NCBI GenBank assembly: GCA_002716645.1
Contig: PBBR01000003.1
Coordinates: forward strand, 1 to 19,275
From: Chloroflexota bacterium
GTDB lineage: Bacteria > Chloroflexota > Dehalococcoidia > UBA3495
Direction of reading: 5' to 3'
DNA length: 19,275 nt
The notes under the pieces are model-generated. The model was not told the origin of the DNA, searched no databases, and saw only the letters and a list, made by a program, of their open reading frames with translations. This document shows positions 1 to 17,957 of the stretch, piece after piece. Made by a program: the position numbers and the translations under genes. How positions within the stretch are numbered: the stretch's first letter is position 1; each line of letters starts with the position of its first letter.

Positions 1-1
1 A

Positions 2-88
2 ATTGAGGAATATGAACAAATTCAAGATTCAGTAGTACAAGCGGTTAACCATTATAAAGGTCTAGACAATAACGAAAATCATTCTTAG
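2..88 (+). CDS. C-terminal tail of an unknown protein (5' truncated)
   Basis: An open frame enters from the left edge and ends at TAG 86-88, giving 28 residues that read IEEYEQIQDS, then a segment ending in NNENHS. The tail is acidic and hydrophilic and carries no recognisable motif. It lies 77 bases before the next plus-strand gene, so it may be the upstream member of the same gene run. With only the last 28 codons visible no function can be assigned, and the frame could in principle be a chance opening; the good stop position and the following gene on the same strand are the only support. Confidence 0.45.
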   Translation: MEEYEQIQDSVVQAVNHYKGLDNNENHS

Positions 89-165
89 ATAGGAAATGAA
101 TTCAAGATATCAATGAAACCCAGGAAAGTATCAAGCTACACACCTAATTTACAAGGAGAATCCGT

Positions 166-438
166 ATGAATAGCGAACAATATGATCCCACTGACATGGA
201 TATATTAGTAGATAACACTACTAAGCGTATAGCTCTGCGATGGCATGCACCAGCACCGATAATACCTTTCGAGAACATCGAAATGTTTCGTGAATGGATG
301 AATAAATTGTCAAACTTAATACCCCAAATTGAAGAGATACTTTCGTTACCTGACGAAGAAACAAGTCCAATTGATTCAGAGTACTTTACTAAAGCTATCC
401 AGGAATGGGAGGAAATTATTCTAAGTAACGCTAACTAA
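166..438 (+). CDS. 90-aa protein, stand-alone copy of the domain found at the N-terminus of the neighbouring phosphatase
   Basis: The ATG has a good ribosome binding site (AAGGAGA, about 151-157). I recognise no named family. Residues 13-86 align with residues 13-82 of the next gene's product: a short beta-rich stretch after an N-T-T / N-P-T-T turn, then hydrophobic-Phe-(E/K)-(N/D) leading into an amphipathic helix (FREWMNKLSNLI against LEAFVDHIIREF), an acidic linker, and a closing A-I-x-x-W-E-E motif (AIQEWEEII against AISSWEEQL). Both proteins also have N-termini of nearly equal length before the match. Seen: the alignment. Inferred: a shared domain used once alone and once fused to a phosphatase, so it may be a partner-binding, sensor or adaptor module. 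Predicted cytoplasmic, with no signal peptide or membrane segment. Confidence 0.8.
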   Translation: MNSEQYDPTDMDILVDNTTKRIALRWHAPAPIIPFENIEMFREWMNKLSNLIPQIEEILSLPDEETSPIDSEYFTKAIQEWEEIILSNAN

Positions 439-804
439 TCATACGGGCCTATAACAAGTAATATCCTTACGTATTCAAATCCATTACTAGCTAATATGGC
501 TTCTTACTTAACCCTGGTTTAGCCGCCCCTATCATAAATATTCAACTTCCTGCCCCCTTTTGATGCCCATCACTCCAACAATTGTACTCATCTTTAGCTA
601 TACCAATCCCTACCAAAGACAATTATTCATTCCTGAGCTAAGTCGAGTCCATGGGGCGCAGATAGATTCACTGTTCCTTCTAATATCCAATTGTTTATCA
701 GTTCGTAGCACCATCAGAAACATGCGTTGAAGCGAAATAATCTCTAATAGGAAGATGAAGATTTGATGTACCACAAGTACGAAATTCACGACAAGGAGGT
801 CGCG
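439..804. other. Non-coding spacer of 366 bases before the phosphatase gene
   Basis: I see no gene, RNA or clear terminator here. The plus strand is strikingly C-rich and G-poor; 541-600 has about 21 C against 5 G. Such sequence resembles Rho-utilisation (rut) sites, which is inference only. An in-frame ATG (766) and TTG (763) upstream of the phosphatase lie in its last 40 bases but have a weaker ribosome binding site than the ATG at 805. Confidence 0.5.
793..799 (+). promoter_or_regulatory. Ribosome binding site that decides the phosphatase start
   Basis: AAGGAGG lies 5 bases before ATG 805. This near-perfect Shine-Dalgarno sequence favours 805 over the in-frame ATG 766 or TTG 763. The N-terminus starting at 805 also matches the length of the related 90-aa protein. 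Confidence 0.75.
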
Positions 805-1662
805 ATGGTTGATAAAGATTCATCGGAGAAACACGGACCCTTATTAGCTATTAATCCCACAACTGGCATTATAGTTCTGCTTATTAAAGGGAGTGTTATC
901 GCTTTCAAGGATTTTCAAGACTTAGAAGCATTTGTAGACCACATAATCCGAGAATTCGACGCGATTAAGCCATTAACTCAAAACTCGTTGAAAGAAGGTA
1001 TAGAAAATGGAGATGCTGAATTGGCCATTTCCTCATGGGAGGAACAATTAAAAAACATGAAAGCCAGCCAAAAAAAGAACATTGATAATGAAGCGCCTTT
1101 AAAGGAGGTTCAAATAAATATTAAGTCAGACAACCAAGAATCCAAGGCAAACCGACTTACTGGTAAAACTAATAGCAATTTTAAGAATGCTAATGAGCAC
1201 CCCTATGAATACCCAGGATTGGAAAACCCATCGTCCTTTGATCCTAAGCAGATTAGCTGGGTTACGGATGATCTGGCTATTACAAATAAGGAAGGCGGCA
1301 GTTTAGCAAGCTCAGAGAATCTATTTGTCATAAATGTTGCGGGAGAAATAATGAACCCAAACTGTGACGAACATATTCCAATAAATCCATACAACGGACC
1401 TGAAAAAACGCGCAGGGCAGTCACGAAAGTGGCCAGGATAATCAACAAAGAACTAGTGGAAGGTAAGCAAGTGGTAGTCCACTGTGCTATGGGAATGGAA
1501 CGGAGTGTACTTTGTGTAGTTTGGTACCTGAATCAATATTGCGATATGGCGATTGACGATGCATATGATTTGGTTCGCACTAGCAGGCCTATCGCGGTGG
1601 ATAGACGACATTGGATCGGCTTCGACAAAGAGAATGGCAAACATACTTCTAGGAGGGATTAA
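805..1662 (+). CDS. Two-domain protein: small N-terminal domain fused to a dual-specificity (cysteine-dependent) phosphatase
   Basis: Residues 13-82 repeat the domain of the 90-aa protein upstream. A hydrophilic linker (about 85-140) leads to a dual-specificity phosphatase domain (about 145-275). The P-loop signature is plain: VVVHCAMGMERS has the CX5R motif with Cys227 as nucleophile, Arg233 and Ser234. The C-terminal RP...W region is also typical. In most family members an Asp follows the 'hIPI' strand and serves as general acid; here the stretch is IPINPYNG, so that Asp is Asn or must be replaced by another acid such as Asp188. The likely substrate is a phosphoprotein, but other phosphate esters are possible. 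It ends in TAATG, overlapping the protease start by one base with an AGGAGGG ribosome binding site inside its own 3' end, so the two are translationally coupled. An N-terminal extension from TTG 763 or ATG 766 is possible. Confidence 0.88.
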   Translation: MVDKDSSEKHGPLLAINPTTGIIVLLIKGSVIAFKDFQDLEAFVDHIIREFDAIKPLTQNSLKEGIENGDAELAISSWEEQLKNMKASQKKNIDNEAPLKEVQINIKSDNQESKANRLTGKTNSNFKNANEHPYEYPGLENPSSFDPKQISWVTDDLAITNKEGGSLASSENLFVINVAGEIMNPNCDEHIPINPYNGPEKTRRAVTKVARIINKELVEGKQVVVHCAMGMERSVLCVVWYLNQYCDMAIDDAYDLVRTSRPIAVDRRHWIGFDKENGKHTSRRD

Positions 1663-3065
1663 TGAATAAGCTAAGTTTGGTTAAAGCATATTTTTCATTT
1701 TCCAAATACAAGACTGTTAAATTAAACAGGTTGGAAGATCAACTACAACCAGTCGGTACCGAACGACGCCGAAAACGATTCTGGCGCAAGCTAGGGGCAA
1801 TATTAGGTATAACCCTGACTGGAATTATTTTCGTCAGACATGGTGTTCCTCTTATTTCAACCCATGTTCCCACATTGATTGAAGGACTACCTCTAGAAAT
1901 CCAATTCGCTGCCATTATGTTGGGACTAGCACCAATCACCATTGGCTTAGGCTGGTTGTTGTACTTAGTCCTGAGAAACATGGCTGAAACACGAGCTATG
2001 GAGGTACAGGTCCGACAGCTACAAAACGTTTCAAAACTAATTGTATACACATATGGAAGTGGAGCCGTTGGTTTCTGTAAAGCTGTAGAAAAACTGAGTG
2101 ACGGCCATACCGTTAAAGAAATGTTCATTTTTGCTCATCCGCCAGTATCAGCTGTAAAAAAAGGGTTCCTAAAAATAAAGGGAGCTATAGTTGCTTGCGC
2201 CCCAGTCCAATTTGCTATGGGCTCAAATAGAGCGGCAATTGCCGCCAGGCGAGTAGAAAAAGATAGCTTCGACAGAACTCATGCAAATGTCTTGAAAGCA
2301 GTAGGTGCAAATAAAACAGCGATCGAATTTAGATTGATTCACATAGGACAAGGCCATACCAGTATTACTTGTGCCTCAGAATGGGGAGAAACACGAACTA
2401 CAGCAATAGTCGGGGCAAGTCCTGCAGTGTACACAATCGTCGTAAGAGATGCGGTAGACACTGATAACCATGAAGTGGACGTATCCGTGTTGAATAAAGC
2501 AAAAGCTTCCGTAGTGCGTATAGAACAAGATGAATTTGTTGGTTCAGGGGTTGTAGTTAATTCACAAGGGTTAGTTTTAACTTGCGCACATGTTCTCGAA
2601 GGTGAAGGACAACCAAGAATTATTTTCGATGACGGGGAGTCGACCACTGGTGACATCATACTCACAGATGAGGAAGCTGACATTGCAGCAATCCAGTGTT
2701 CAAAATCTGGCCCACTAAATCCAATCAATATGGGAGATTCTTCGTCTTTAGTTTCCGGAGACTGGGTATTCGCAATTGGATATCCTGGAATTGATGCCGA
2801 TGAGGTAGCACCTAACCCGAACCCAGGATTCATCACAGAGGTATCCGAACATAGGGGGCATGAAATTATTCTAACCGATAATTCTGTCACTCACGGTTAT
2901 TCTGGAGCCCCATTAATAACTACAAACGGTGAACTCGTGGGCCTCGTCACTTCAAAATACTCAGACGAAGATCACAACGTCACGATGTCCATATCTGGAA
3001 ACGAAGCTTTTGATGTCTTGAACGAATTGACAAACCCGAAATTCAGCATGTCAGGTGACAATTAA
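1662..3065 (+). CDS. Membrane-anchored trypsin-like serine protease (S1/DegP-like fold)
   Basis: The 467-aa product has a basic N-terminus (RRRKRFWRK, 35-43), two hydrophobic helices (about 44-65 and 79-104), an unassigned alpha/beta region (about 115-265), and a C-terminal trypsin-like domain (about 275-455). The triad is visible: His310 in LTCAHV, Asp340 in EEADIAA, Ser414 in HGYSGAPLI. The G-x-S-G-x-P form is typical of bacterial trypsin/Deg proteases; no PDZ domain follows. Positive residues flank both helices on their outer sides (RRRKRF before, RNMAETR after), so the positive-inside rule puts both ends, including the protease, in the cytoplasm. That differs from the usual periplasmic Deg topology and suits an intracellular signalling or defence protease. 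The start overlaps the phosphatase stop by one base, and the next gene begins 17 bases after its stop. Substrate unknown; the co-encoded proteins are candidates. Confidence 0.9.
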   Translation: MNKLSLVKAYFSFSKYKTVKLNRLEDQLQPVGTERRRKRFWRKLGAILGITLTGIIFVRHGVPLISTHVPTLIEGLPLEIQFAAIMLGLAPITIGLGWLLYLVLRNMAETRAMEVQVRQLQNVSKLIVYTYGSGAVGFCKAVEKLSDGHTVKEMFIFAHPPVSAVKKGFLKIKGAIVACAPVQFAMGSNRAAIAARRVEKDSFDRTHANVLKAVGANKTAIEFRLIHIGQGHTSITCASEWGETRTTAIVGASPAVYTIVVRDAVDTDNHEVDVSVLNKAKASVVRIEQDEFVGSGVVVNSQGLVLTCAHVLEGEGQPRIIFDDGESTTGDIILTDEEADIAAIQCSKSGPLNPINMGDSSSLVSGDWVFAIGYPGIDADEVAPNPNPGFITEVSEHRGHEIILTDNSVTHGYSGAPLITTNGELVGLVTSKYSDEDHNVTMSISGNEAFDVLNELTNPKFSMSGDN

Positions 3066-3082
3066 ACACGAAGGAGTTGATT

Positions 3083-3880
3083 ATGTTAAGCAAGTGGAAT
3101 TTTCAAGGGGAACGTAGACCTAGTAGGTCAGAAATTAAAGGTAAATCTAAAACTGATCTCCGAATACTTCCTCCTTGGGTTAAGTCGGTAACCAAGAATT
3201 TGCAGTCGCCACGTACGACACTAGTCTTAGTTAACAACTTAAGTGGGTCAGATCGAGACAGGAACAGAACAGACGAAGAATTGGCCAAGATAGGATTAAT
3301 TGGATCTCAACTTGCTGGTGAAATCGTATCAGGAAGAGAGCCTCAAGCGATTGCTACAGACCATGTCTGCCCACCTTGCACCTTTAGCACAGTGCAGGAA
3401 TTCTTTCCATACAGTGCAATAACTCTCGCACAACAATGGGAAGAGGAGGGTATGCCAACATTACTACCGAACAATATTCTCCCACCCCAAAGTGATAGAG
3501 AACGGAGAATGGCTATTTTATACGGCGTTGGCGATATAAATGAGCTGCAAGAGCTAGAGGAACTAATACTGAACTTATTTGATCCAAGTATTTATGAAAA
3601 ATGTTTCACTTCCTTTGATGGTCTCCCTAGCCATATGAACGATGTTACCCAATTTTTCGTTCAGTGGGAGCTAACTGATGATGAAGCTGCAGCAGCTCTA
3701 GGTGTGTCCAGTAACTCACCTGAATTTTCCGAAATCATGGATCTTCTTTCCAAGAAATCCAACTCAGTCGATAAGGATCGAAAACATAATATCAAACCAC
3801 CGTGCGAGCGAAGTTGGTCTAGCCTTAAATTCAGCAGTTTGGTATCTCAAAAAACTACAATCGGAGGGAAAGAATGCTAA
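3083..3880 (+). CDS. Unknown 265-aa protein of the protease/phosphatase cluster
   Basis: I do not recognise this protein. ATG 3083 has AAGGAG (3071-3076) six bases upstream; an in-frame TTG at 3077 overlaps that site and is unlikely. The first 25 residues are basic (GERRPSRSEIKGKSK). A strand-like TTLVLVNNLSG (45-55) is followed by a charged loop and helix. There is one CxxC (Cys96, Cys99), an acidic helical stretch INELQELEELILNLF (152-166), and a helical ELTDDEAAAALGVS (196-209) that looks like the first helix and turn of a helix-turn-helix but is too short to call. No signal peptide or membrane helix. It begins 17 bases after the protease gene and overlaps the next gene by 7 bases, so it belongs to the same translational unit. 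It could be a substrate or partner of the protease; that is inference. Confidence 0.85.
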   Translation: MLSKWNFQGERRPSRSEIKGKSKTDLRILPPWVKSVTKNLQSPRTTLVLVNNLSGSDRDRNRTDEELAKIGLIGSQLAGEIVSGREPQAIATDHVCPPCTFSTVQEFFPYSAITLAQQWEEEGMPTLLPNNILPPQSDRERRMAILYGVGDINELQELEELILNLFDPSIYEKCFTSFDGLPSHMNDVTQFFVQWELTDDEAAAALGVSSNSPEFSEIMDLLSKKSNSVDKDRKHNIKPPCERSWSSLKFSSLVSQKTTIGGKEC

Positions 3881-5256
3881 AACATATTACTATTACCCAG
3901 GCAATAACAAATTCAGACCGGCTAATTAAATTAGCTCTTGTCATGGTTATTTTCTTGGTAGGCTTTACCCTAATGGTCAAACCGGCATCGGCACAAGAAA
4001 CAGACGAACTTCTGACACTTTCTAGTCAAAATCCAAATCCGATTCTTACAACTTCTATTACAGGAATAACAGTTAACTTCACTCCAGGCCTAACCAGTCC
4101 TACCACTGGCACTGCTATTACGAGTGCTACTACAGGAGTAACAGTCACTTCTACCCCTGATATGACTCGTCCTACCACTGATACTCCTACCGGAAACTCT
4201 GAACCTGACTCAACCAATAGCTTAAATTCATCTAATGAAAGTCCTGAAATGTTGAGCTATGTGGATCCTTCTCAACAGGCGTTTACGAGATTTGAAATAC
4301 GTCAAAAGGCCCGCATTGATTTATCAGGAACATTAGAAGTCCTAGGTCCAAATTTTGGACAATCCGTTCCTTATTCTGTCGCCAAAGGTGATGAATTAAC
4401 TGTGTTTTCACTCTTTCCAGGGCAAACTGGCAAATATCTGTTGAATCTAAATGCGGCAGGTAAATCAGATCCGATTTTATGGATAGAAGGGGAGCTTACA
4501 CCAATCTCAGACGGTAGCTATAGGCACCAATTCATTAACGGTGACGCTAACCCTGAAATATTAGAACTCACACCGGAATCAGACGGCATGGTTATATCAG
4601 TTGGATCAGTTCGAGCTAGACTAAATAGTTGTGTAGCGCTTTCTTCCCCTGTTAATGGCAAATTTGAATTGGGAGCAGACCAAGATGGGGATGGCAAGAT
4701 CAGCAACCAAGAGCTAGTAACCTTACCTCTAGAATCCACAGATTCTGCCTGTGTCAAAACACGAGAAGTAAATATCCCGTTAACAAGCCTTTACAAATCA
4801 CAAATAACTGGTTCGCAAGGGGAGATTATTGCTAAGAATACAGGATTATATGATTTTCTAAATAAGTCAGCTATCGATTCTAATAAAGAATCACAAGAAG
4901 AGCTCGTAAAGGAATTCAAGGTTCAATGGATAAGGACACCAGTAGCCGCCTCCATTCCAATCCGAAACGATTCGTTAAGACCTCCTTCTGTCGAGTTTAT
5001 TGTGATTCCTGAGGTCGAAGAGGTAACCGGAGATATCATACAGAATGGTGTTCCCAATTCTGTAGATAAAGGAGATTTGGACGAAGTTCAGCAAAACCAA
5101 CTAATTGACACTGATAACTCTGACACTGGATTTCTCTTAGGCTTCATGATCGATCATTGGCTATGGTTGATAGTGGGTGGTGGTTTTTTGGTAGCAATTT
5201 ATCTCATATCTAAAACCATAATCACTACATATCTTTACGATGCTAGAAAATCCTAA
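3874..5256 (+). CDS. Secreted, membrane-anchored surface protein with Thr-rich linker and EF-hand calcium loop
   Basis: The 460-aa product starts with a signal peptide: hydrophobic core LALVMVIFLVGFTLMV (20-35) and an ASA-QE cleavage motif after residue 40. A low-complexity Thr/Ser/Pro stretch follows (about 55-122) with repeated T-T-G-(I/V)-T-V-(N/T) units, typical of a wall or surface spacer. Residues 130-370 look like beta-sandwich material of no family I can name. DQDGDGKISNQE (269-280) is a textbook 12-residue EF-hand loop with acidic positions 1, 3, 5 and 12. A C-terminal helix (about 428-450) and a short tail YLYDARKS anchor it as a type I membrane protein. ATG 3874 overlaps the previous stop by 7 bases and has CGGAGGG at 3862-3868. 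An extracytoplasmic protein in a cluster of cytoplasmic-type enzymes suggests an envelope sensor or a protein exposed to the invader; inference. Confidence 0.88.
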   Translation: MLKHITITQAITNSDRLIKLALVMVIFLVGFTLMVKPASAQETDELLTLSSQNPNPILTTSITGITVNFTPGLTSPTTGTAITSATTGVTVTSTPDMTRPTTDTPTGNSEPDSTNSLNSSNESPEMLSYVDPSQQAFTRFEIRQKARIDLSGTLEVLGPNFGQSVPYSVAKGDELTVFSLFPGQTGKYLLNLNAAGKSDPILWIEGELTPISDGSYRHQFINGDANPEILELTPESDGMVISVGSVRARLNSCVALSSPVNGKFELGADQDGDGKISNQELVTLPLESTDSACVKTREVNIPLTSLYKSQITGSQGEIIAKNTGLYDFLNKSAIDSNKESQEELVKEFKVQWIRTPVAASIPIRNDSLRPPSVEFIVIPEVEEVTGDIIQNGVPNSVDKGDLDEVQQNQLIDTDNSDTGFLLGFMIDHWLWLIVGGGFLVAIYLISKTIITTYLYDARKS

Positions 5257-5419
5257 TCATCTAGACCCACAAATCTAATTACCCCCAAGCACCTTAACTA
5301 TCAATAATCATTGTCTGACGGTCACTCTCGTCACTTACATGCGAACCGCGATAAAAACCCTCTTCATGCCCAAACACTACTCAGTTAGTAGCTAAACTTT
5401 TCAAAATAGGAGTTAACAT

Positions 5420-6358
5420 ATGAACATAAACGCGAATAATCTATTTGGTCACATTAACTACGGAGACCCGCAAATTTATAAGAATGTAGCCTTTATTCCT
5501 CTTTATTCAAACTCTAGTCCATCTTTGGAATACCGTACAATGCCCGAATTAAATATGGGAAGCGACTTGGAAATATCAGAAATAGGGGGTGGATCAGTAG
5601 GAAAACTATCGGTGACGAATAACACAGATGGCTTTGTATTGTTGGTAGACGGTGAAGAAGTCATGGGTGCAAAGCAAAATCGAGCATTCAATACAACTAT
5701 GATGATTGAACCCAGACAATCGAGCATACTACAAGTTAGCTGTACAGAGAGTGGCCGGTGGTCTCCATCTTTCCATAATTACTTTGGTGATTCTGGCGTA
5801 GTAATGCCATCCGCAGCCAGATATAACCGAAAGCGGTCTGTAGATGAAAGCCTTGCCTCGAGAGGCGAATTCAAGAGCGATCAACGGCAGGTATGGGAAG
5901 ATATAAATGATCTACAAGATTTGGCAGGAGAAACCACATCAACGTCAGCAATGCGCGATGTATATGAATCTCAAAGCAATGCTCTTGCTGAATTCGTTAA
6001 TGCGTTCGACTATCATTCTGGGCAGATTGGTATCGCGGTACTCATCGACAATGATGTCGTCGGTTTAGAGATGTTCTCCAGGTCATCTGCAATGAAGAAG
6101 ATGGCTCCAAAGATAATAAAGAGCTACGGTATGGACGTGAACCTCGGTCGTATTTCAGATATTAAACACGACAAAATATCAGATATCCCAATGTTTTTAA
6201 AGAAAATAAACAATATGAACCCTGCCTGTTTCAAATCTGAAGGGGTCGGATGGGATTATAGATTTGAGGCTGACAATATTTCAGGTTCAGCATTAATTTG
6301 TGAGGACGAAATGGTCCATGCATCCTTTTATAACGGTAATCGCCTTTACCAAAGTTAG
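5420..6358 (+). CDS. ARPP-1 domain protein
   Basis: Residues 20-115 carry the hallmark pattern of the ARPP-1 family (ARG and rhodanese-phosphatase-superfamily associated protein): an N-terminal strand 'nVAFIPLYS', a V-x-E-I/V-like strand, LLVDGEEVMGAKQNR (74-88), N91, and a VSC-x-E-x-GRW motif (Cys108, Glu110, Gly112, Arg113, Trp114). The C-terminal half (about 150-312) is helical then beta and fits the family's usual length of roughly 300 residues. No catalytic activity is established to my knowledge; as I recall, the family was named for gene-neighbourhood links to ADP-ribosylglycohydrolases and to rhodanese/cysteine phosphatases in predicted immune systems. The dual-specificity phosphatase four genes upstream fits this association. 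TAGGAG (5407-5412) lies 7 bases before the ATG. A 163-base spacer separates it from the surface-protein gene, so it may have its own promoter. Confidence 0.85.
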   Translation: MNINANNLFGHINYGDPQIYKNVAFIPLYSNSSPSLEYRTMPELNMGSDLEISEIGGGSVGKLSVTNNTDGFVLLVDGEEVMGAKQNRAFNTTMMIEPRQSSILQVSCTESGRWSPSFHNYFGDSGVVMPSAARYNRKRSVDESLASRGEFKSDQRQVWEDINDLQDLAGETTSTSAMRDVYESQSNALAEFVNAFDYHSGQIGIAVLIDNDVVGLEMFSRSSAMKKMAPKIIKSYGMDVNLGRISDIKHDKISDIPMFLKKINNMNPACFKSEGVGWDYRFEADNISGSALICEDEMVHASFYNGNRLYQS

Positions 6359-6595
6359 ACATTTCAAAGATCTTGAAGTCAAAAATAGATCAGATTCATA
6401 CACTACAAGAACCAAACTATGCCTAGAGGGTGTCTCAATAACCGGATGAAGATCCCCTTAAACATCATTTTAGAGCTTAGTCACCTAGATTCATCCCTCT
6501 TCAGTTTCAGCAACTAGCACTGTATCACCAAAATAACATTACCCCAGCCAACATCTTTTGTACTGCTGTAAACCTATATTTTAAGGAGATAATAA

Positions 6596-7900
6596 ATGGT
6601 AGCTGTAGAATTCAACACGTCACATATAACCTTGCACGGTAATAGTGTAGAAATCGCCGATTTATCAATACATAGTACCGAACTGGTAGATTATCTAGAG
6701 AATTTTCCTCTGGACGATAGGATAAGCAAATTTAACCAATTAATTGAGGTCGGCTTGGTGTGCATCCAAAGAGCTTCTGTAATCCAAGACAAAGATTTTG
6801 TACAGAACCAATTAAGAAGCGTAATTGACAATGTAGAAAAGGGACTCGCAATAGTACCTGATGTAGTCAAAGAAAAGATCCTAGCTAGCCTAGGAACCAA
6901 CGAAGGCCAGGTGTTACACCCTGTCGATTTAAAAATTAACGAAGTCGCAAAAGTGTTAAAGGACCGAATGGACGATGTGAAAAGGCTGTTATCCGATGAT
7001 ATAGACCCTCAAAAGAAAACCTCTAAAGTGGCTCAAGTATTTGAGAAGCTAGATAAAACATTGGACCCTGACTACGTCAAGTCGGTACCCAAAACTATTG
7101 AACTTGCCCTGAACGAAGTCACGTCAGAACACGGACTTCTATCGAAAAATGTCAAATCAGTAGTTATTGAAGCAATTAAACCCTTGAAAGATGAAGTAGA
7201 CAATCTTAGTAGAGAAATTTTAGGACAAGAAGCCGTCACAGAAGCGCTTCTAGAAACAACAGAGAAAGGCCAGGTTTATGAAGAAGCAACTGTATCCCGT
7301 CTGCAAGCCTGGTGTCGTGCTAACGGAGCAGAACTGTCCCATATAGGAATGGACAATAAACCTGGAGACATACTCTTAAATATAAAAAGTAGTTCTATCG
7401 CAGGGGTAGATCTCAGAATAGTCATTGAAACTAGAGACAGAAAAAATCACGCCGGCAGGAGGCCTCTTAATGATTCTATGGAAGAATCTATGTCCGAGCG
7501 CTCTGCCGACTGTGGTATCTACCTAAGTAAAGATATTGATGGATTTGGCAAAGAAATTGGAGACTGGGCAGAAGGAGACTGTTCCCTGGGCAAGTGGGTT
7601 GCTACTACTGATGAACACTTAATCAATGCAATACGCTTTTTGATACTTAGTCACCGAATATCCATTATGCAGTCACAAACCCCGAAAGTAGATCTTCAAG
7701 CGTTAGAACCGCAAATGACAAGAATCAGGACAGCTTTGAAACGTGTCGCGAATATTAATAAAAAGGTTACTACTATACGTCAAAGTGCCGATGAGATTAA
7801 AAAAGAGGGGGAGCTATTGAGGGATGACATCAGGGACTCCATCACATTGATGGAAGATAGTCTAAGAATCTCTCCTACTAGTCAAATACCCACGGATTAA
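6596..7900 (+). CDS. Coiled-coil protein with probable PD-(D/E)xK-like nuclease core
   Basis: The 434-aa product has long charged helices on both sides of a compact alpha/beta region. Residues 105-220 and 360-425 look like coiled coil (regular I/L/V spacing with K/E/D). The central region (about 222-340) runs KGQVYEEATVSRLQAW (helix with Glu229), GDILLNI (Asp258), then a strand VIETRDRK (Glu278, Arg280, Lys283) and RSADCGIYLSKD. This order, Glu-helix, GD, strand with E-x-(K), then a helix and a strand ending in '(Y/V)LS', resembles restriction-endonuclease-fold proteins such as RmuC and DUF2130. The usual Lys of E-x-K is Arg here, with Lys three residues further on, so activity is uncertain. 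It is preceded by AAGGAG (about 6581-6586) and a 237-base C-rich spacer. Likely cytoplasmic and nucleic-acid-directed; a structural role is the alternative. Confidence 0.75.
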   Translation: MVAVEFNTSHITLHGNSVEIADLSIHSTELVDYLENFPLDDRISKFNQLIEVGLVCIQRASVIQDKDFVQNQLRSVIDNVEKGLAIVPDVVKEKILASLGTNEGQVLHPVDLKINEVAKVLKDRMDDVKRLLSDDIDPQKKTSKVAQVFEKLDKTLDPDYVKSVPKTIELALNEVTSEHGLLSKNVKSVVIEAIKPLKDEVDNLSREILGQEAVTEALLETTEKGQVYEEATVSRLQAWCRANGAELSHIGMDNKPGDILLNIKSSSIAGVDLRIVIETRDRKNHAGRRPLNDSMEESMSERSADCGIYLSKDIDGFGKEIGDWAEGDCSLGKWVATTDEHLINAIRFLILSHRISIMQSQTPKVDLQALEPQMTRIRTALKRVANINKKVTTIRQSADEIKKEGELLRDDIRDSITLMEDSLRISPTSQIPTD

Positions 7901-8106
7901 ACTCAATCGTGGTTTAATTCTCCACTTGCAAACACATACCTTATCACAAACACCACCTACGGATATGAGCACCAGTTGCATGAGCGAAAGCACAGACTGA
8001 ACCGATGGTCTAATAAGCAGCTAATTCGCCAGTATAACTGCGACCAGATAGATACGTTTAAATATCAATCTATATATACAAGACCAGGAGCAAAGGGAGG
8101 CTCAGT

Positions 8107-8262
8107 ATGAAATTAACTAAAACTGACAAGAGAATGGAGCATAGAAGACGTCTTAGATACGGTCATCAAGGAGCCGGTTCATGTCATACAAGACAGGCCA
8201 GTGACGCTGAAGTTCTGAGACATGTTGAGAAGGCTCGCCGTAAGAACGAGGGGAAACTATGA
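8107..8262 (+). CDS. Small basic 51-aa protein, coupled to the exonuclease gene
   Basis: ATG 8107 is preceded by AGGGAGG (8094-8100) six bases upstream, one of the strongest ribosome binding sites in the window. The product begins MKLTKTDKRMEHRRRLRYGH and ends VEKARRKNEGKL; it is very basic, with Arg/Lys at both ends and a single Cys and several His in the middle (GSCHTRQ). The stop overlaps the next start as ATGA (8259-8262), so the two are translationally coupled. I recognise no family. A nucleic-acid-binding partner or regulator of the exonuclease is a reasonable guess; a short leader peptide that only helps initiate the next gene is the alternative. Its composition and the strong initiation signal make a chance frame unlikely. 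Confidence 0.72.
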   Translation: MKLTKTDKRMEHRRRLRYGHQGAGSCHTRQASDAEVLRHVEKARRKNEGKL

Positions 8263-9116
8263 TTAAAAATCATACACATCCATCCAAGTCATGTCCGAGG
8301 AAATTACTTATTATCGATGGTCATGCTGTGGCATTTTATTGCTGGTTCTCAAATTACTTAGACAGCATAATTCCCGGAGTGTTAAAAAAAATATCACAAG
8401 CTATCGACGAACATAGCCCATCACACATTGTAGTAGCATTTGATCCCAAGCCACCTACTTTTCGACATAACTTATATCCAGCATATAAAGCCAACAGACC
8501 TCCGGTTCCTAAGAAGTTTCTTGATGAGTGCAAACATCTGTTCAAAATTTTAGAGTCCATTAGAATTCCCTTTTACGAGTTATCTGGTTACGAAGCGGAC
8601 GACGTTATCGGTACCTGTGTCACCCACTTCAGCCAGATAGGCTTTGACTCAGTTATCCTGACTTGCGATCTAGATTTACTACAACTGACTAACCACTCAG
8701 TCCAAGTAGAGGTATTCAGTCAGTATTGGCCGACACGTATATTTGATCAAACCGCAGCAAAACGGCGATTTGGTGGCATAGAGCCAATCAATATCCCAGA
8801 TTTTAAGGCACTAGCTGGAGATAGATCAGATAACTTGCCAGGAATAGTAGGCATAGGATCTAAGAGTGCTACCTCACTCTTATTAGAAAGAGGTGATCTC
8901 GAAGGCATATATGAAGATTTGGACAGTGTTCTTGATCTGAATATTAGGGGTGCTAAGCGAATACATCAATTACTCGAGTCAAATCGCCAAAATGCTTATA
9001 TAATGCGCGACCTTGCAACTATAGTGAGAGATGCCCCTCTAAGCATTGATCCAAAAGATATTGAATGCGGGATAATATACAAGGACATACAGCGTGTATT
9101 AGAAGACGATTATTAG
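8259..9116 (+). CDS. Stand-alone 5'-3' exonuclease / FEN-family nuclease (DNA polymerase I N-terminal domain type)
   Basis: The 285-aa protein covers the 5'-3' exonuclease domain of bacterial DNA polymerase I without any polymerase part. Metal-binding residues of the family are in place: Asp20 (LLIIDGHA), Asp62 (VVAFDPKPPTFRH), Glu112/Asp114/Asp115 (YEADDVIGT), Asp137 and Asp139 (TCDLDLLQL), and Asp188/Asp191 (AGDRSDNLPG). The helix-hairpin-helix/H3TH segment GIVGIGSKSATSLL follows at 195-208. The arch with R-x-x-LYPAYKANR (69-80) is also canonical. Expected role: cleavage of 5' flaps or 5' ends of DNA, possibly RNA primers. It overlaps the 51-aa gene by 4 bases and is followed after 53 bases by another small nuclease-like gene. 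The sequence is divergent from housekeeping copies (for example CDLD for the usual DKD), which suits an accessory or phage-derived paralogue. Confidence 0.93.
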   Translation: MIKNHTHPSKSCPRKLLIIDGHAVAFYCWFSNYLDSIIPGVLKKISQAIDEHSPSHIVVAFDPKPPTFRHNLYPAYKANRPPVPKKFLDECKHLFKILESIRIPFYELSGYEADDVIGTCVTHFSQIGFDSVILTCDLDLLQLTNHSVQVEVFSQYWPTRIFDQTAAKRRFGGIEPINIPDFKALAGDRSDNLPGIVGIGSKSATSLLLERGDLEGIYEDLDSVLDLNIRGAKRIHQLLESNRQNAYIMRDLATIVRDAPLSIDPKDIECGIIYKDIQRVLEDDY

Positions 9117-9169
9117 ATTAGAAAAGCAGTCGATGACAATCAAAGATTAGATGTCGTACGGAGAAAATT

Positions 9170-9526
9170 ATGGAATTACCTCTATCTTGGTGGATAATGT
9201 CTGGTCTAGTAGTGACCGTATTATTAAGCATATTATTTAATATGTCTCTTATCAAACAATTGGGCAAAATACAGTCGCAACTAAAAAGCGTATACACCAA
9301 GCACGGACTTATGGCTGAACAGTTTTTACCTTTCTCAAAATTATTCCCTGGCGATCCTCGCAATTTTAGATTTTTAGGCTCACCAGTAGACGGTATTTCA
9401 TTTGAAGACGACAAAGTATTAATATTCGAATTTAAAACAGGGAAAAGCCGTCTTTCCCCTAAGCAAGAACACATAAAAGATTTAATTAGGAACGGAAAAG
9501 TATTTTTCAAAGAAGTACGGGTCTAA
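9170..9526 (+). CDS. Small membrane-anchored endonuclease-like protein related to Holliday junction resolvases (Endonuc_Holl type)
   Basis: The 118-aa product has an N-terminal membrane helix (about 8-25), a short linker helix (QLGKIQSQLKSVYTKHG) and a C-terminal compact domain: SPVDGISFEDD (Asp74), VLIFEFKTGKSRLSPKQE (Glu87-x-Lys89, Gln99), then a final strand KVFFKEVRV. The D...E-x-K pattern with a Gln in the next helix, and the overall size, match the family described as predicted membrane-associated endonucleases distantly related to archaeal Holliday junction resolvases (COG4741). GGAG (about 9161-9164) precedes the ATG. It follows the FEN-type exonuclease by 53 bases on the same strand and likely shares its transcript. 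Catalytic activity has not been shown for this family that I know of, so the activity is inferred from the fold. Confidence 0.8.
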   Translation: MELPLSWWIMSGLVVTVLLSILFNMSLIKQLGKIQSQLKSVYTKHGLMAEQFLPFSKLFPGDPRNFRFLGSPVDGISFEDDKVLIFEFKTGKSRLSPKQEHIKDLIRNGKVFFKEVRV

Positions 9527-9682
9527 AAGATATTTTACAGGCAGTGCGAACAATTTCTGCATCAATTGAAGTAACAGTAGGAATACAAGCACGGGAACGT
9601 ATCAGACGCTTTAACTCCAACAGTAATAGTATCTAGTACTAAATTACTTTGAGTTTGTCGAGTATCAGACGAACAGTGAAGA

Positions 9683-9705
9683 TTTAAACGTTTTTTTAAA
9701 CGTTT
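9683..9705. repeat. Two tandem 11-bp copies of TTTAAACGTTT
   Basis: Copies at 9683-9693 and 9695-9705, with one T between, so the period is 12 bases. The AAACGTTT core is itself palindromic. It lies about 90 bases before the tRNA fragment. Possible arm-type integrase sites or operator; alternatively a chance AT-rich repeat. Confidence 0.7.
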
Positions 9706-9706
9706 C

Positions 9707-9740
9707 TGCATCGGACATCGATAGAACCTTATCCGACGCA
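9707..9740. repeat. Inverted repeat TGCATCGGA / TCCGACGCA
   Basis: Arms at 9707-9715 and 9732-9740 pair with one G-A mismatch position (8 of 9) around a 16-base loop. No T-run follows, so it is not a standard terminator. It sits between the TTTAAACGTTT repeats and the tRNA fragment. Confidence 0.55.
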
Positions 9741-9790
9741 TATAGAATGAACCGTTCGTAAAACGATGTAGTTTTAAAGGCGGGAGTACC

Positions 9791-9837
9791 GCATGGGGTG
9801 TAGGGGGTCGTCGGTTCGAATCCGACCGCCCCGACCA
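9791..9837 (+). other. 3' half of a tRNA-Pro(GGG) gene; probable attachment site (attR-like) closing the island
   Basis: The stretch reads as the anticodon loop ATGGGGT (9793-9799) with GGG anticodon, G37 and the A32/U38 pair characteristic of tRNA-Pro(GGG), a GGGTC variable loop (9805-9809), a perfect T arm (GTCGG-TTCGAAT-CCGAC, 9810-9826), the acceptor 3' strand CGCCCCG (9827-9833), discriminator A and encoded CCA (9835-9837). The 5' half is missing: no CGGGGCG acceptor strand or D arm occurs upstream, and the 5' anticodon stem (ACCGC) pairs poorly with GTAGG. A terminator follows directly, as for a real tRNA gene. Loss of the 5' half with the boundary in the anticodon stem-loop is what integration by a tyrosine recombinase leaves at the distal end. 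The intact tRNA-Pro should lie beyond the left edge. The alternative is a decayed tRNA gene without integration. Confidence 0.75.
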
Positions 9838-9853
9838 CGCACAGTTTGTGCGT
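9837..9853. repeat. Short perfect hairpin directly after the tRNA CCA
   Basis: ACGCACA - GTT - TGTGCGT forms a 7-bp stem (9837-9843 with 9847-9853) whose first base is the last A of CCA. It could guide 3' processing or be part of the terminator region. Confidence 0.5.
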
Positions 9854-9857
9854 AAAT

Positions 9858-9884
9858 GGGCCTAGTAATAGGCCCTCTATTTTT
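9858..9884 (+). terminator. Rho-independent terminator after the tRNA-Pro fragment
   Basis: GGGCCTA - GTAA - TAGGCCC (9858-9875) is a perfect 7-bp stem followed by TCTATTTTT. It is almost identical to the hairpin at 10711-10728. Its position shows that the tRNA 3' end is on its native chromosomal side. Confidence 0.85.
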
Positions 9885-10012
9885 GCCCATTTTTCACGTG
9901 TTTTGATATGTATATACAAGCTAAAAACATATTCGAACTACCCACAAGTGGGCAGGACAACTGATTCAAACTGGTTAGCAAGTTACCTACACTTATCACA
10001 AACCATTCTGCT

Positions 10013-17747: not shown

Positions 17748-17957
17748 ATGAATTGCCATGAAAAAAAGGTGTACACAAATAAACAATCCGCGAACGCAGC
17801 TGCAGATGTACATAATCGAGACCTGTATCGTCAGGAAGGCGAGATGAATGCCTATCACTGTAAATTTCATAAAGGATGGCATTTGGGCCATCCTAAGAGT
17901 TATGATAAAAACTCTACGGGGCGGATCTTCAATATATTAGATAAGTTGAAAAAATAA
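17748..17957 (+). CDS. Small 69-aa protein with Cys/His pattern, possible zinc-binding
   Basis: The product holds Cys3, Cys38, His41, His45 and His48 in the arrangement CHEKKVYTNKQSANAAA ... AYHCKFHKGWHLGHP. The Y-x-(S/N)-x-x-x-A-x-x-A helix followed by an AY-x-C-x-x-(C/H)-x-x-W-H-L-G-H end recurs in small proteins of phages, plasmids and actinobacteria, where a Cys/His cluster likely binds zinc. The function of that group is unknown to me. It lies 76 bases after the decarboxylase beta gene without a terminator between, and is followed by a strong bidirectional hairpin. The ribosome binding site is weak. It could be a read-through passenger of the decarboxylase operon or independent. Confidence 0.65.
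   Translation: MNCHEKKVYTNKQSANAAADVHNRDLYRQEGEMNAYHCKFHKGWHLGHPKSYDKNSTGRIFNILDKLKK

What the first reader, a model, noticed from the sequence alone, without database searches (positions are those of the whole stretch)
166..7900. Candidate conflict system: phosphatase, membrane protease, surface protein, ARPP-1 and nuclease-like protein in one plus-strand array
The order is small domain protein, the same domain fused to a cysteine phosphatase, membrane-anchored trypsin-like protease, unknown 265-aa protein, EF-hand surface protein, ARPP-1 protein, coiled-coil nuclease-like protein. The middle four overlap or are nearly contiguous. ARPP-1 is known from predicted immune systems with rhodanese/phosphatase-superfamily partners, which matches. 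The combination with a predicted cytoplasmic protease and an exported protein is not one I can name. I infer a threshold-type defence system using dephosphorylation and/or proteolysis for activation. A kinase or ADP-ribosylation partner is not visible and may lie left of the window.
Basis: partly seen in the sequence, partly recalled or inferred. Interest (0 to 1): 0.82.

Follow-up and report, generated by a model that had tools for sequence, protein, structure and literature searches.

The report
ARPP-1, phosphatase, protease, nuclease gene array
A run of genes in an uncultured bacterium, probably of the ocean SAR202 kind, puts an ARPP-1 gene next to a cysteine phosphatase, a membrane protease and several nuclease-like genes; it looks like an unusual relative of a predicted anti-virus system, but the full set was not seen in any clearly separate lineage and its function is untested.

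Summary
The genes are real and mostly as described. ARPP-1 is certain (PF20208, E=7e-78). The phosphatase has an intact HCx5R site. The protease has an HtrA-like trypsin domain after two hydrophobic segments. The 90-aa protein is the phosphatase's N-terminal domain by profile comparison. The coiled-coil protein belongs to a wide PD-(D/E)XK nuclease-like family. The EF-hand is one loop below the Pfam cut-off. The conflict-system reading is partly supported: ARPP-1, R-P phosphatase and REase fold are modules of a published prediction (PMC9503650), and a canonical ARPP/phosphatase/ARG locus exists in the same order as the window's nearest sampled kin (L165). But no ARG, WYL, Nudix or Macro gene was found in the window, and tblastn found none of the window's phosphatase, protease, unknown, exported or nuclease genes in 80 ARPP-1 loci. 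ARPP-1, nuclease and phosphatase recur together only on what appears to be one close-relative contig. New: this phosphatase subfamily recurs beside nucleases (SNase in 6 of 8 viral loci; in L179 a stand-alone 5'-3' exonuclease 53% identical to window 8259-9116), so the unit probably reaches about 9.1-9.5 kb. Best reading: an ARG-less, nuclease-rich variant of that predicted module. Threshold, kinase and protease-activation steps are unproven. Interest moderate.

The parts
166..438 (+). 90-aa stand-alone copy of the domain fused to the phosphatase (three strands and two helices in a low-confidence model of the fused copy)
   Evidence: hhalign probability 93, score 40.7, best of 200 shuffles 20.7; model of the fused copy
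763..1662 (+). N-terminal domain + dual-specificity (R-P superfamily) cysteine phosphatase; likely real start ATG 805 (285 aa)
   Evidence: DSPc 5.1e-12; HCx5R; eight further full-length fusions P0110-P0117 at 35-39% identity
1662..3065 (+). Membrane-anchored trypsin/HtrA-like serine protease without PDZ match; catalytic domain predicted on the cytoplasmic side
   Evidence: Trypsin_2 1.5e-27; HhoA/HtrA best PDB sequence matches; hydrophobic segments and triad; side of membrane inferred from the basic N-terminus
3083..3880 (+). 265-aa protein of unknown family (TTG 3077 possible)
   Evidence: no significant match in Pfam, PADLOC, NCBIfam, PHROGs, none in plasmids or, for close kin only, viral contigs
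3874..5256 (+). Exported, C-terminally membrane-anchored protein with a short Thr/Pro-rich repeat and one EF-hand-like loop
   Evidence: two 72-nt tandem copies 4046-4189, 71% alike
5420..6358 (+). ARPP-1 protein
   Evidence: PF20208 E=7e-78; 49 proteins at E<=0.001 including itself; E79 E80 Q86 N87 R88 C108 E110 R113 W114 invariant in 44 of 44
6596..7900 (+). Helical protein with a central PD-(D/E)XK nuclease-like domain (aa 226-361)
8107..8262 (+). 51-aa ORF with a Shine-Dalgarno-like sequence, overlapping the exonuclease start
   Evidence: sequence; no Pfam match
8259..9116 (+). Stand-alone 5'-3' exonuclease (Pol I N-terminal type); probable member of the unit
   Evidence: 5_3_exonuc_N 3.5e-35; 53.6% identical homologue near a phosphatase of the same subfamily in L179
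9170..9526 (+). Holliday-junction-resolvase-related endonuclease with an N-terminal hydrophobic segment; possible member
   Evidence: Endonuc_Holl 3.1e-14; hydrophobic segment 3-32

Best explanation
The array is most likely an accessory conflict (anti-phage or stress) cassette of a Dehalococcoidia (SAR202-like) bacterium. It is a variant of the predicted ARG / R-P-phosphatase / ARPP / REase systems in which no ARG is visible and nucleases and a membrane protease are added. Proposed working, inferred at every step: (1) infection or damage makes modified or cleaved nucleic acid, nucleotide or protein; (2) the N-terminal domain, present free and fused, docks the cysteine phosphatase to that target or to its partners, and the phosphatase with ARPP-1 removes or captures phosphate- and sugar-bearing products; (3) the PD-(D/E)XK protein and the 5'-3' exonuclease degrade DNA; (4) the protease, held at the inner face of the membrane with an exported partner protein, releases or activates one of the others. 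Shown: families, active-site residues, gene order, linkage of the phosphatase with nucleases in other loci. Not shown: any activity, any order of activation, that all genes act together.
Against: No ARG, ART, Macro, NADAR, Nudix or WYL match in the 20 window proteins scanned. By tblastn 0 of 80 ARPP-1 loci carry the window's phosphatase, protease, unknown, exported or nuclease genes; the exonuclease matches in 2 of 80, at 33%. Only 2 of 48 ARPP-1 genomes have the nuclease family at all. The window's phosphatase is below the cut-off of Tc-R-P (23.2 of 27 bits), whereas the ARPP-linked phosphatases I scanned (L045, L165) score best as Tc-R-P or PTP-SAK. ARPP-1 and the nuclease are 163 and 237 nt from the gene before them. 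Equal contig length is only a proxy for linkage: chance expectation 0.22 over all ARPP x nuclease pairs, 0.011 for a close clade chosen after the fact. PADLOC has no match for ARPP-1 and only E=0.52 for the nuclease. Distant nuclease relatives sit by Ku (L126 by Pfam, L130 and L136 by eye), which points to repair.
Confidence: 0.4

Rival explanations
1. No single system: a tight four-gene membrane operon (phosphatase, protease, unknown, exported) followed by independent accessory genes (ARPP-1, nuclease, exonuclease, resolvase-like) that happen to share a strand.
For: Gaps of 163, 237 and 358 nt after the four-gene operon; no co-occurrence with ARPP-1 in 80 loci or with the nuclease in 26 loci, apart from 2 exonuclease matches; a number of ARPP-1 neighbours are housekeeping, e.g. 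nitroreductase, glycosyl hydrolases, amylase.
Against: The phosphatase is linked to the exonuclease in L179 and apparently, on a close relative's contig, to ARPP-1 and the nuclease; ARPP-1 neighbours R-P phosphatases (3 of 80 and L165) and nuclease-like genes elsewhere.
Confidence: 0.3
2. A nucleic-acid end-processing or repair unit: phosphatase and nucleases clean or degrade broken or foreign nucleic acid, with ARPP-1 acting on a sugar or abasic product.
For: This phosphatase subfamily lies just downstream of an SNase in 6 of 8 viral loci (5 distinct, as L174 and L175 are near-identical) and by a stand-alone 5'-3' exonuclease in L179; the window has three nuclease-like genes in a row and a UDG 2.5 kb on; nuclease relatives by Ku; ARPP-1 neighbours include ERCC4, DUF2779, RNase_T and PIN genes; PMC9503650 suggests an SRAP-like sugar cross-link for ARPP.
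Against: SRAP chemistry uses an N-terminal cysteine (recalled), whereas ARPP-1's invariant cysteine is internal, C108. The P-loop HCAMGMERS is of ordinary DSP type, not the HCTHGxNRTG of RNA 5'-phosphatases (recalled). It does not explain the membrane protease or the exported protein.
Confidence: 0.2
3. A protease-activated nuclease pair of the recently described kind (trypsin-like protease unlocking a pro-nuclease).
For: [quoted passage not shown] PMC12799240 (abstract, introduction and part 1 of 2 of Results read) shows such pairs at work in Hachiman and AVAST; PADLOC hits of this protease are to RT-Protease_XI, LmuA, Avs1b and HamA models.
Against: There the nuclease is MBL-fold and immediately upstream, and the protease is fused to a defence enzyme; here the nuclease is PD-(D/E)XK and four genes downstream, and the protease is membrane-anchored with no such fusion partner recognised. 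No other nuclease-family locus examined has the protease (0 of 26). The PADLOC hits cover only the trypsin part.
Confidence: 0.08

Closest known systems
ARG-centred counter-ADP-ribosylation conflict systems with R-P phosphatase and ARPP (predicted, PMC9503650 section 3.8)
   Same: ARPP-1 itself; an R-P superfamily phosphatase; a restriction-endonuclease-fold protein; sporadic occurrence
   Different: No ARG, WYL/Nudix regulator, recognised chaperone, Macro or NADAR gene in the window; DSPc-type phosphatase fused to a small domain of its own; extra membrane protease, exported protein, 5'-3' exonuclease and resolvase-like gene
Nuclease-protease pairs of Hachiman, AVAST, Lamassu and DRT (PMC12799240)
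   Same: Trypsin-like protease and a nuclease encoded close together
   Different: PD-(D/E)XK instead of MBL nuclease; protease membrane-anchored, with no defence enzyme fused; not adjacent; no sensor ATPase recognised
Mrr_cat restriction-endonuclease family (PF04471)
   Same: E..GD..Ex(K/R) motif; relative P0098 scores above the Pfam cut-off (25.1 of 21 bits)
   Different: The window protein itself has no significant Pfam match; long helical flanks; Arg in place of the usual catalytic Lys (Arg in 40 of 44 rows)

Membership tests
ARG/R-P/ARPP predicted system | ARPP domain | tested here: met
   PF20208 E=7e-78
ARG/R-P/ARPP predicted system | R-P superfamily phosphatase in the neighbourhood | tested here: met
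   DSPc 5.1e-12 with HCx5R; not of the Tc-R-P/PTP-SAK type by cut-off
ARG/R-P/ARPP predicted system | ADP-ribosylglycohydrolase (ARG), the centre of the system | tested here: not met
   No PF03747 match among the 20 window proteins scanned; the left flank lies outside the window
ARG/R-P/ARPP predicted system | WYL or Nudix transcription factor (stated for over 42% of systems) | tested here: not met
   None; WYL found in 18 of 80 other ARPP-1 loci
ARG/R-P/ARPP predicted system | REase-fold effector (optional) | tested here: met
PD-(D/E)XK nuclease superfamily (6596-7900) | Core fold with acidic E, D, Ex(K/R) residues | tested here: met
   E229, D258, E278 in 44 of 44; R or K at 280 in 44 of 44; fold elements
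PD-(D/E)XK nuclease superfamily (6596-7900) | DNA cleavage | not testable with these tools
   needs biochemistry; the ExR variant could lower activity
Nuclease-protease pair (PMC12799240) | MBL-fold nuclease immediately upstream of the protease | tested here: not met
   No lactamase-type match in the window proteins scanned
Nuclease-protease pair (PMC12799240) | Protease fused to a HamA/Avs/LmuA-type enzyme | tested here: not met
   Only the trypsin part matches those models
HtrA/Deg protease family (1662-3065) | Trypsin-fold domain with triad | tested here: met
HtrA/Deg protease family (1662-3065) | C-terminal PDZ domain | tested here: not met
   No PDZ match; the protein ends 39 aa after the Trypsin_2 match
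EF-hand protein (3874-5256) | EF-hand motif above Pfam cut-off | tested here: not met
   17.4 bits against 25.9

The most novel reading that the evidence does not exclude
A phosphatase-coupled nucleic-acid-degrading cassette: a DSP subfamily whose recurrent partner is a nuclease (SNase in viral contigs, 5'-3' exonuclease in a relative's genome, three nuclease-like genes here) has joined ARPP-1 and a cytoplasm-facing membrane protease in an uncultured, probably marine bacterium, giving a defence system in which dephosphorylation and/or proteolysis unlocks the nucleases.
Probability: 0.17. Interest if true: 0.75.

Novelty: new variant of a known kind. Interest (0 to 1): 0.45.

Why it matters
By sequence, ARPP-1 has no solved relative (0 chains at E<=0.1), and in the one paper that my searches turned up on it (PMC9503650; searches; section 3.8 and passages read) its activity is proposed, not tested. 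A setting with a phosphatase and nucleases but no ARG asks directly whether ARPP-1 acts on ADP-ribose or on nucleic-acid sugars. The repeated pairing of this phosphatase subfamily with nucleases, in viral contigs and in a bacterial genome, is a concrete biochemical lead. The lineage's defences are little studied, in my impression (not a search result).

Tried and rejected
Shared N-terminal module between the nuclease and the phosphatase: hhalign score 14.9, inside 60 column-shuffles (best 18.4); rejected.

RNA 5'-phosphatase reading of the phosphatase: the P-loop does not carry the recalled HCTHGxNRTG signature; not pursued.

ARPP-1 in viral contigs: 148 pattern matches, none a relative. Unknown protein, protease and exonuclease in viral contigs, and unknown protein in plasmids: nothing; the single-protein viral scans reach close kin only. 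Nuclease, phosphatase and the 69-aa protein (17748-17957) in named phages: no match; the exonuclease matches 767 phage records, none at 60% identity or more (top rows 32-38%).

Synteny with the eight genomes nearest by UDG (50-60% identity): UDG in each, with DLH in two, ADH in one and a 27% exonuclease match in one; three of the stretches are under 8 kb. No empty site could be shown. The ARPP-1 locus L164 (7.3 kb) was read but its neighbours were not scanned.

Protease near the 80 ARPP-1 loci: phmmer with the window's protease domain, none at E<=10 among 1,137 ORFs of 81 loci; a low-sensitivity test. The Pfam neighbour tallies print only the first 25 of 127 and 130 families, so a rare trypsin neighbour could be hidden.

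Promoters and terminators in 1-10000: no excess over shuffles. No tRNA or Rfam match.

Foldseek with the nuclease model: nothing at E<=0.001. Families not listed there or by VIA-align are untested, not excluded. The model's pTM is 0.41. A literature search for SAR202 and phage defence listed no paper with the word SAR202 among the 10 shown of 1,627; one for phosphatase with thermonuclease in marine phages listed one unrelated paper.
Full report
What is there. Phosphatase and protease overlap by one base, the unknown protein starts 17 nt (ATG 3083) or 11 nt (TTG 3077) later, and the exported protein overlaps it by 7 nt. ARPP-1, nuclease and exonuclease follow after 163, 237 and 358 nt. Shine-Dalgarno-like sequences stand before the starts I looked at. 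Promoter and terminator patterns show no excess over shuffles.

Families. ARPP-1: PF20208 E=7e-78; 49 proteins at E<=0.001, itself included. In an alignment of 44, E79, E80, Q86, N87, R88, C108, E110, R113 and W114 are among the invariant columns, in line with the conserved Cys and Gln noted in PMC9503650. Phosphatase: DSPc 5.1e-12, with Tc-R-P at 23.2 bits, under its cut-off of 27. Eight further full-length fusions with the same N-terminal domain exist as metagenome proteins (P0110-P0117). The 90-aa protein is that domain. Protease: Trypsin_2 1.5e-27, nearest solved sequences HhoA and other HtrA/Deg proteases, two hydrophobic segments after a basic N-terminus, so the catalytic domain is predicted, not shown, to face the cytoplasm. 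Its residues 105-250 match nothing significant. The exported protein's EF-hand is one loop below the Pfam cut-off. The 265-aa protein is an orphan in every search made.

Where ARPP-1 lives. In those 80 loci, 3 to 21 kb long and many cut by contig ends, tblastn at 1e-4 found none of the 90-aa, phosphatase, protease, unknown, exported, nuclease or resolvase-like genes; the exonuclease matched in two, at 33%. A profile of the phosphatase gave one weak hit, L045 at 3.5e-4. Clusters of neighbours: WYL regulator in 18 loci (13 as next upstream gene), ARG in 10, DUF2779 in 6, ERCC4 in 5, R-P phosphatase in 3. Pfam over 257 of the 258 nearest ORFs agrees: WYL 17, ARG 7, DUF2779 at least 6, Tc-R-P at least 3 (lists capped at 25 families). 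PADLOC over the first 128 shows DrmD and other helicase models matched by two members. This reproduces published contexts. Some neighbours are housekeeping.

Organism. The window's UDG has strong matches in a subset of the class of L065 (best 60%, G325), and the window's CoA-transferases, flavin reductase and TPP enzymes fit a SAR202-like bacterium; other classes were not searched, so that name is my inference. In the order of G325, ARPP-1 occurs in 3 of 197 genomes, one only as two weak partial matches; one, L165, is the canonical ARPP / TPR-R-P phosphatase / ARG locus. No synteny with the window was found in eight near genomes.

The phosphatase goes with nucleases. In the same order 1 genome of 197 has a strong match, two more are weak. 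Its 5-kb contig L179 reads phosphatase, an unnamed protein (vWA-like by eye, no Pfam match), then a 5'-3' exonuclease 53.6% identical to window 8259-9116, co-oriented. The Pol I-sized gene of the same genome is only 37% identical. In 57 genomes searched with the exonuclease, the other two hits at E<=1e-55 lie in Pol I-sized ORFs. In viral (IMG/VR) contigs (8 loci, 7 contigs, two near-identical) an SNase lies within about 330 nt upstream of the phosphatase in 6 of 8 (5 distinct), 4.4 kb away in L172, and was not found in L173. Two of the 8 also carry a trypsin-like protease about 2 kb on (L168 by Pfam, L169 by similarity), with no phmmer match to the window's. The unit should therefore probably be drawn to about 9.1-9.5 kb; this rests on one bacterial locus for the exonuclease.

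Linkage. Matching longest-contig lengths suggest that ARPP-1, nuclease and phosphatase of a close relative (88, 95, 86%) share a 31,992-bp contig, and that a 48% ARPP-1 and a 56% nuclease share a 4,355-bp contig. Expected chance matches for ARPP x nuclease are 0.22 over all pairs and 0.011 for the close clade, chosen after the fact. The ARPP and phosphatase lists also share 3,318 bp, but from different sources, so probably by chance.

Judgement. Observation confirmed, the EF-hand being weak. The conflict reading is plausible in part: three modules of a published prediction stand together, the genes are accessory, and the nuclease family keeps conflict-type and mobile company. The defining ARG is missing, so the array is not a member of that system as tested, though it may work like one. 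Protease activation resembles PMC12799240 (abstract, introduction and part 1 of 2 of Results read) only in outline.

Noticed in passing
window 17748-17957: A 69-aa protein with homologues within 2 kb of phosphatases of the window's subfamily in viral contigs (L171 51% over 64 aa; L174/L175 34%) and weak PHROG matches: two genes of this window share viral neighbours.
   Followed up: partly
L168 7542-8417, L169, L170, L171, L174: Conserved SNase-phosphatase gene pair in viral contigs, with a trypsin-like protease downstream in L168 and L169.
   Followed up: partly
L126, L130, L136: Distant relatives of the window's nuclease sit by Ku genes (L126 by Pfam, the others by eye), hinting at a role in end joining in some Chloroflexota.
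   Followed up: partly
L165 8954-13229: ARPP-1, TPR-fused R-P phosphatase and ARG in one locus of the order of the window's nearest sampled kin: a canonical example of the published system.
   Followed up: yes
L084 7986-9267: The nuclease of a Nostoc plasmid is split into two ORFs, decayed or a sequencing error.
   Followed up: no
window 1-89: The tail of an upstream plus-strand reading frame (about 28 aa visible) ends at 89, so the array may start left of the window.
   Followed up: no
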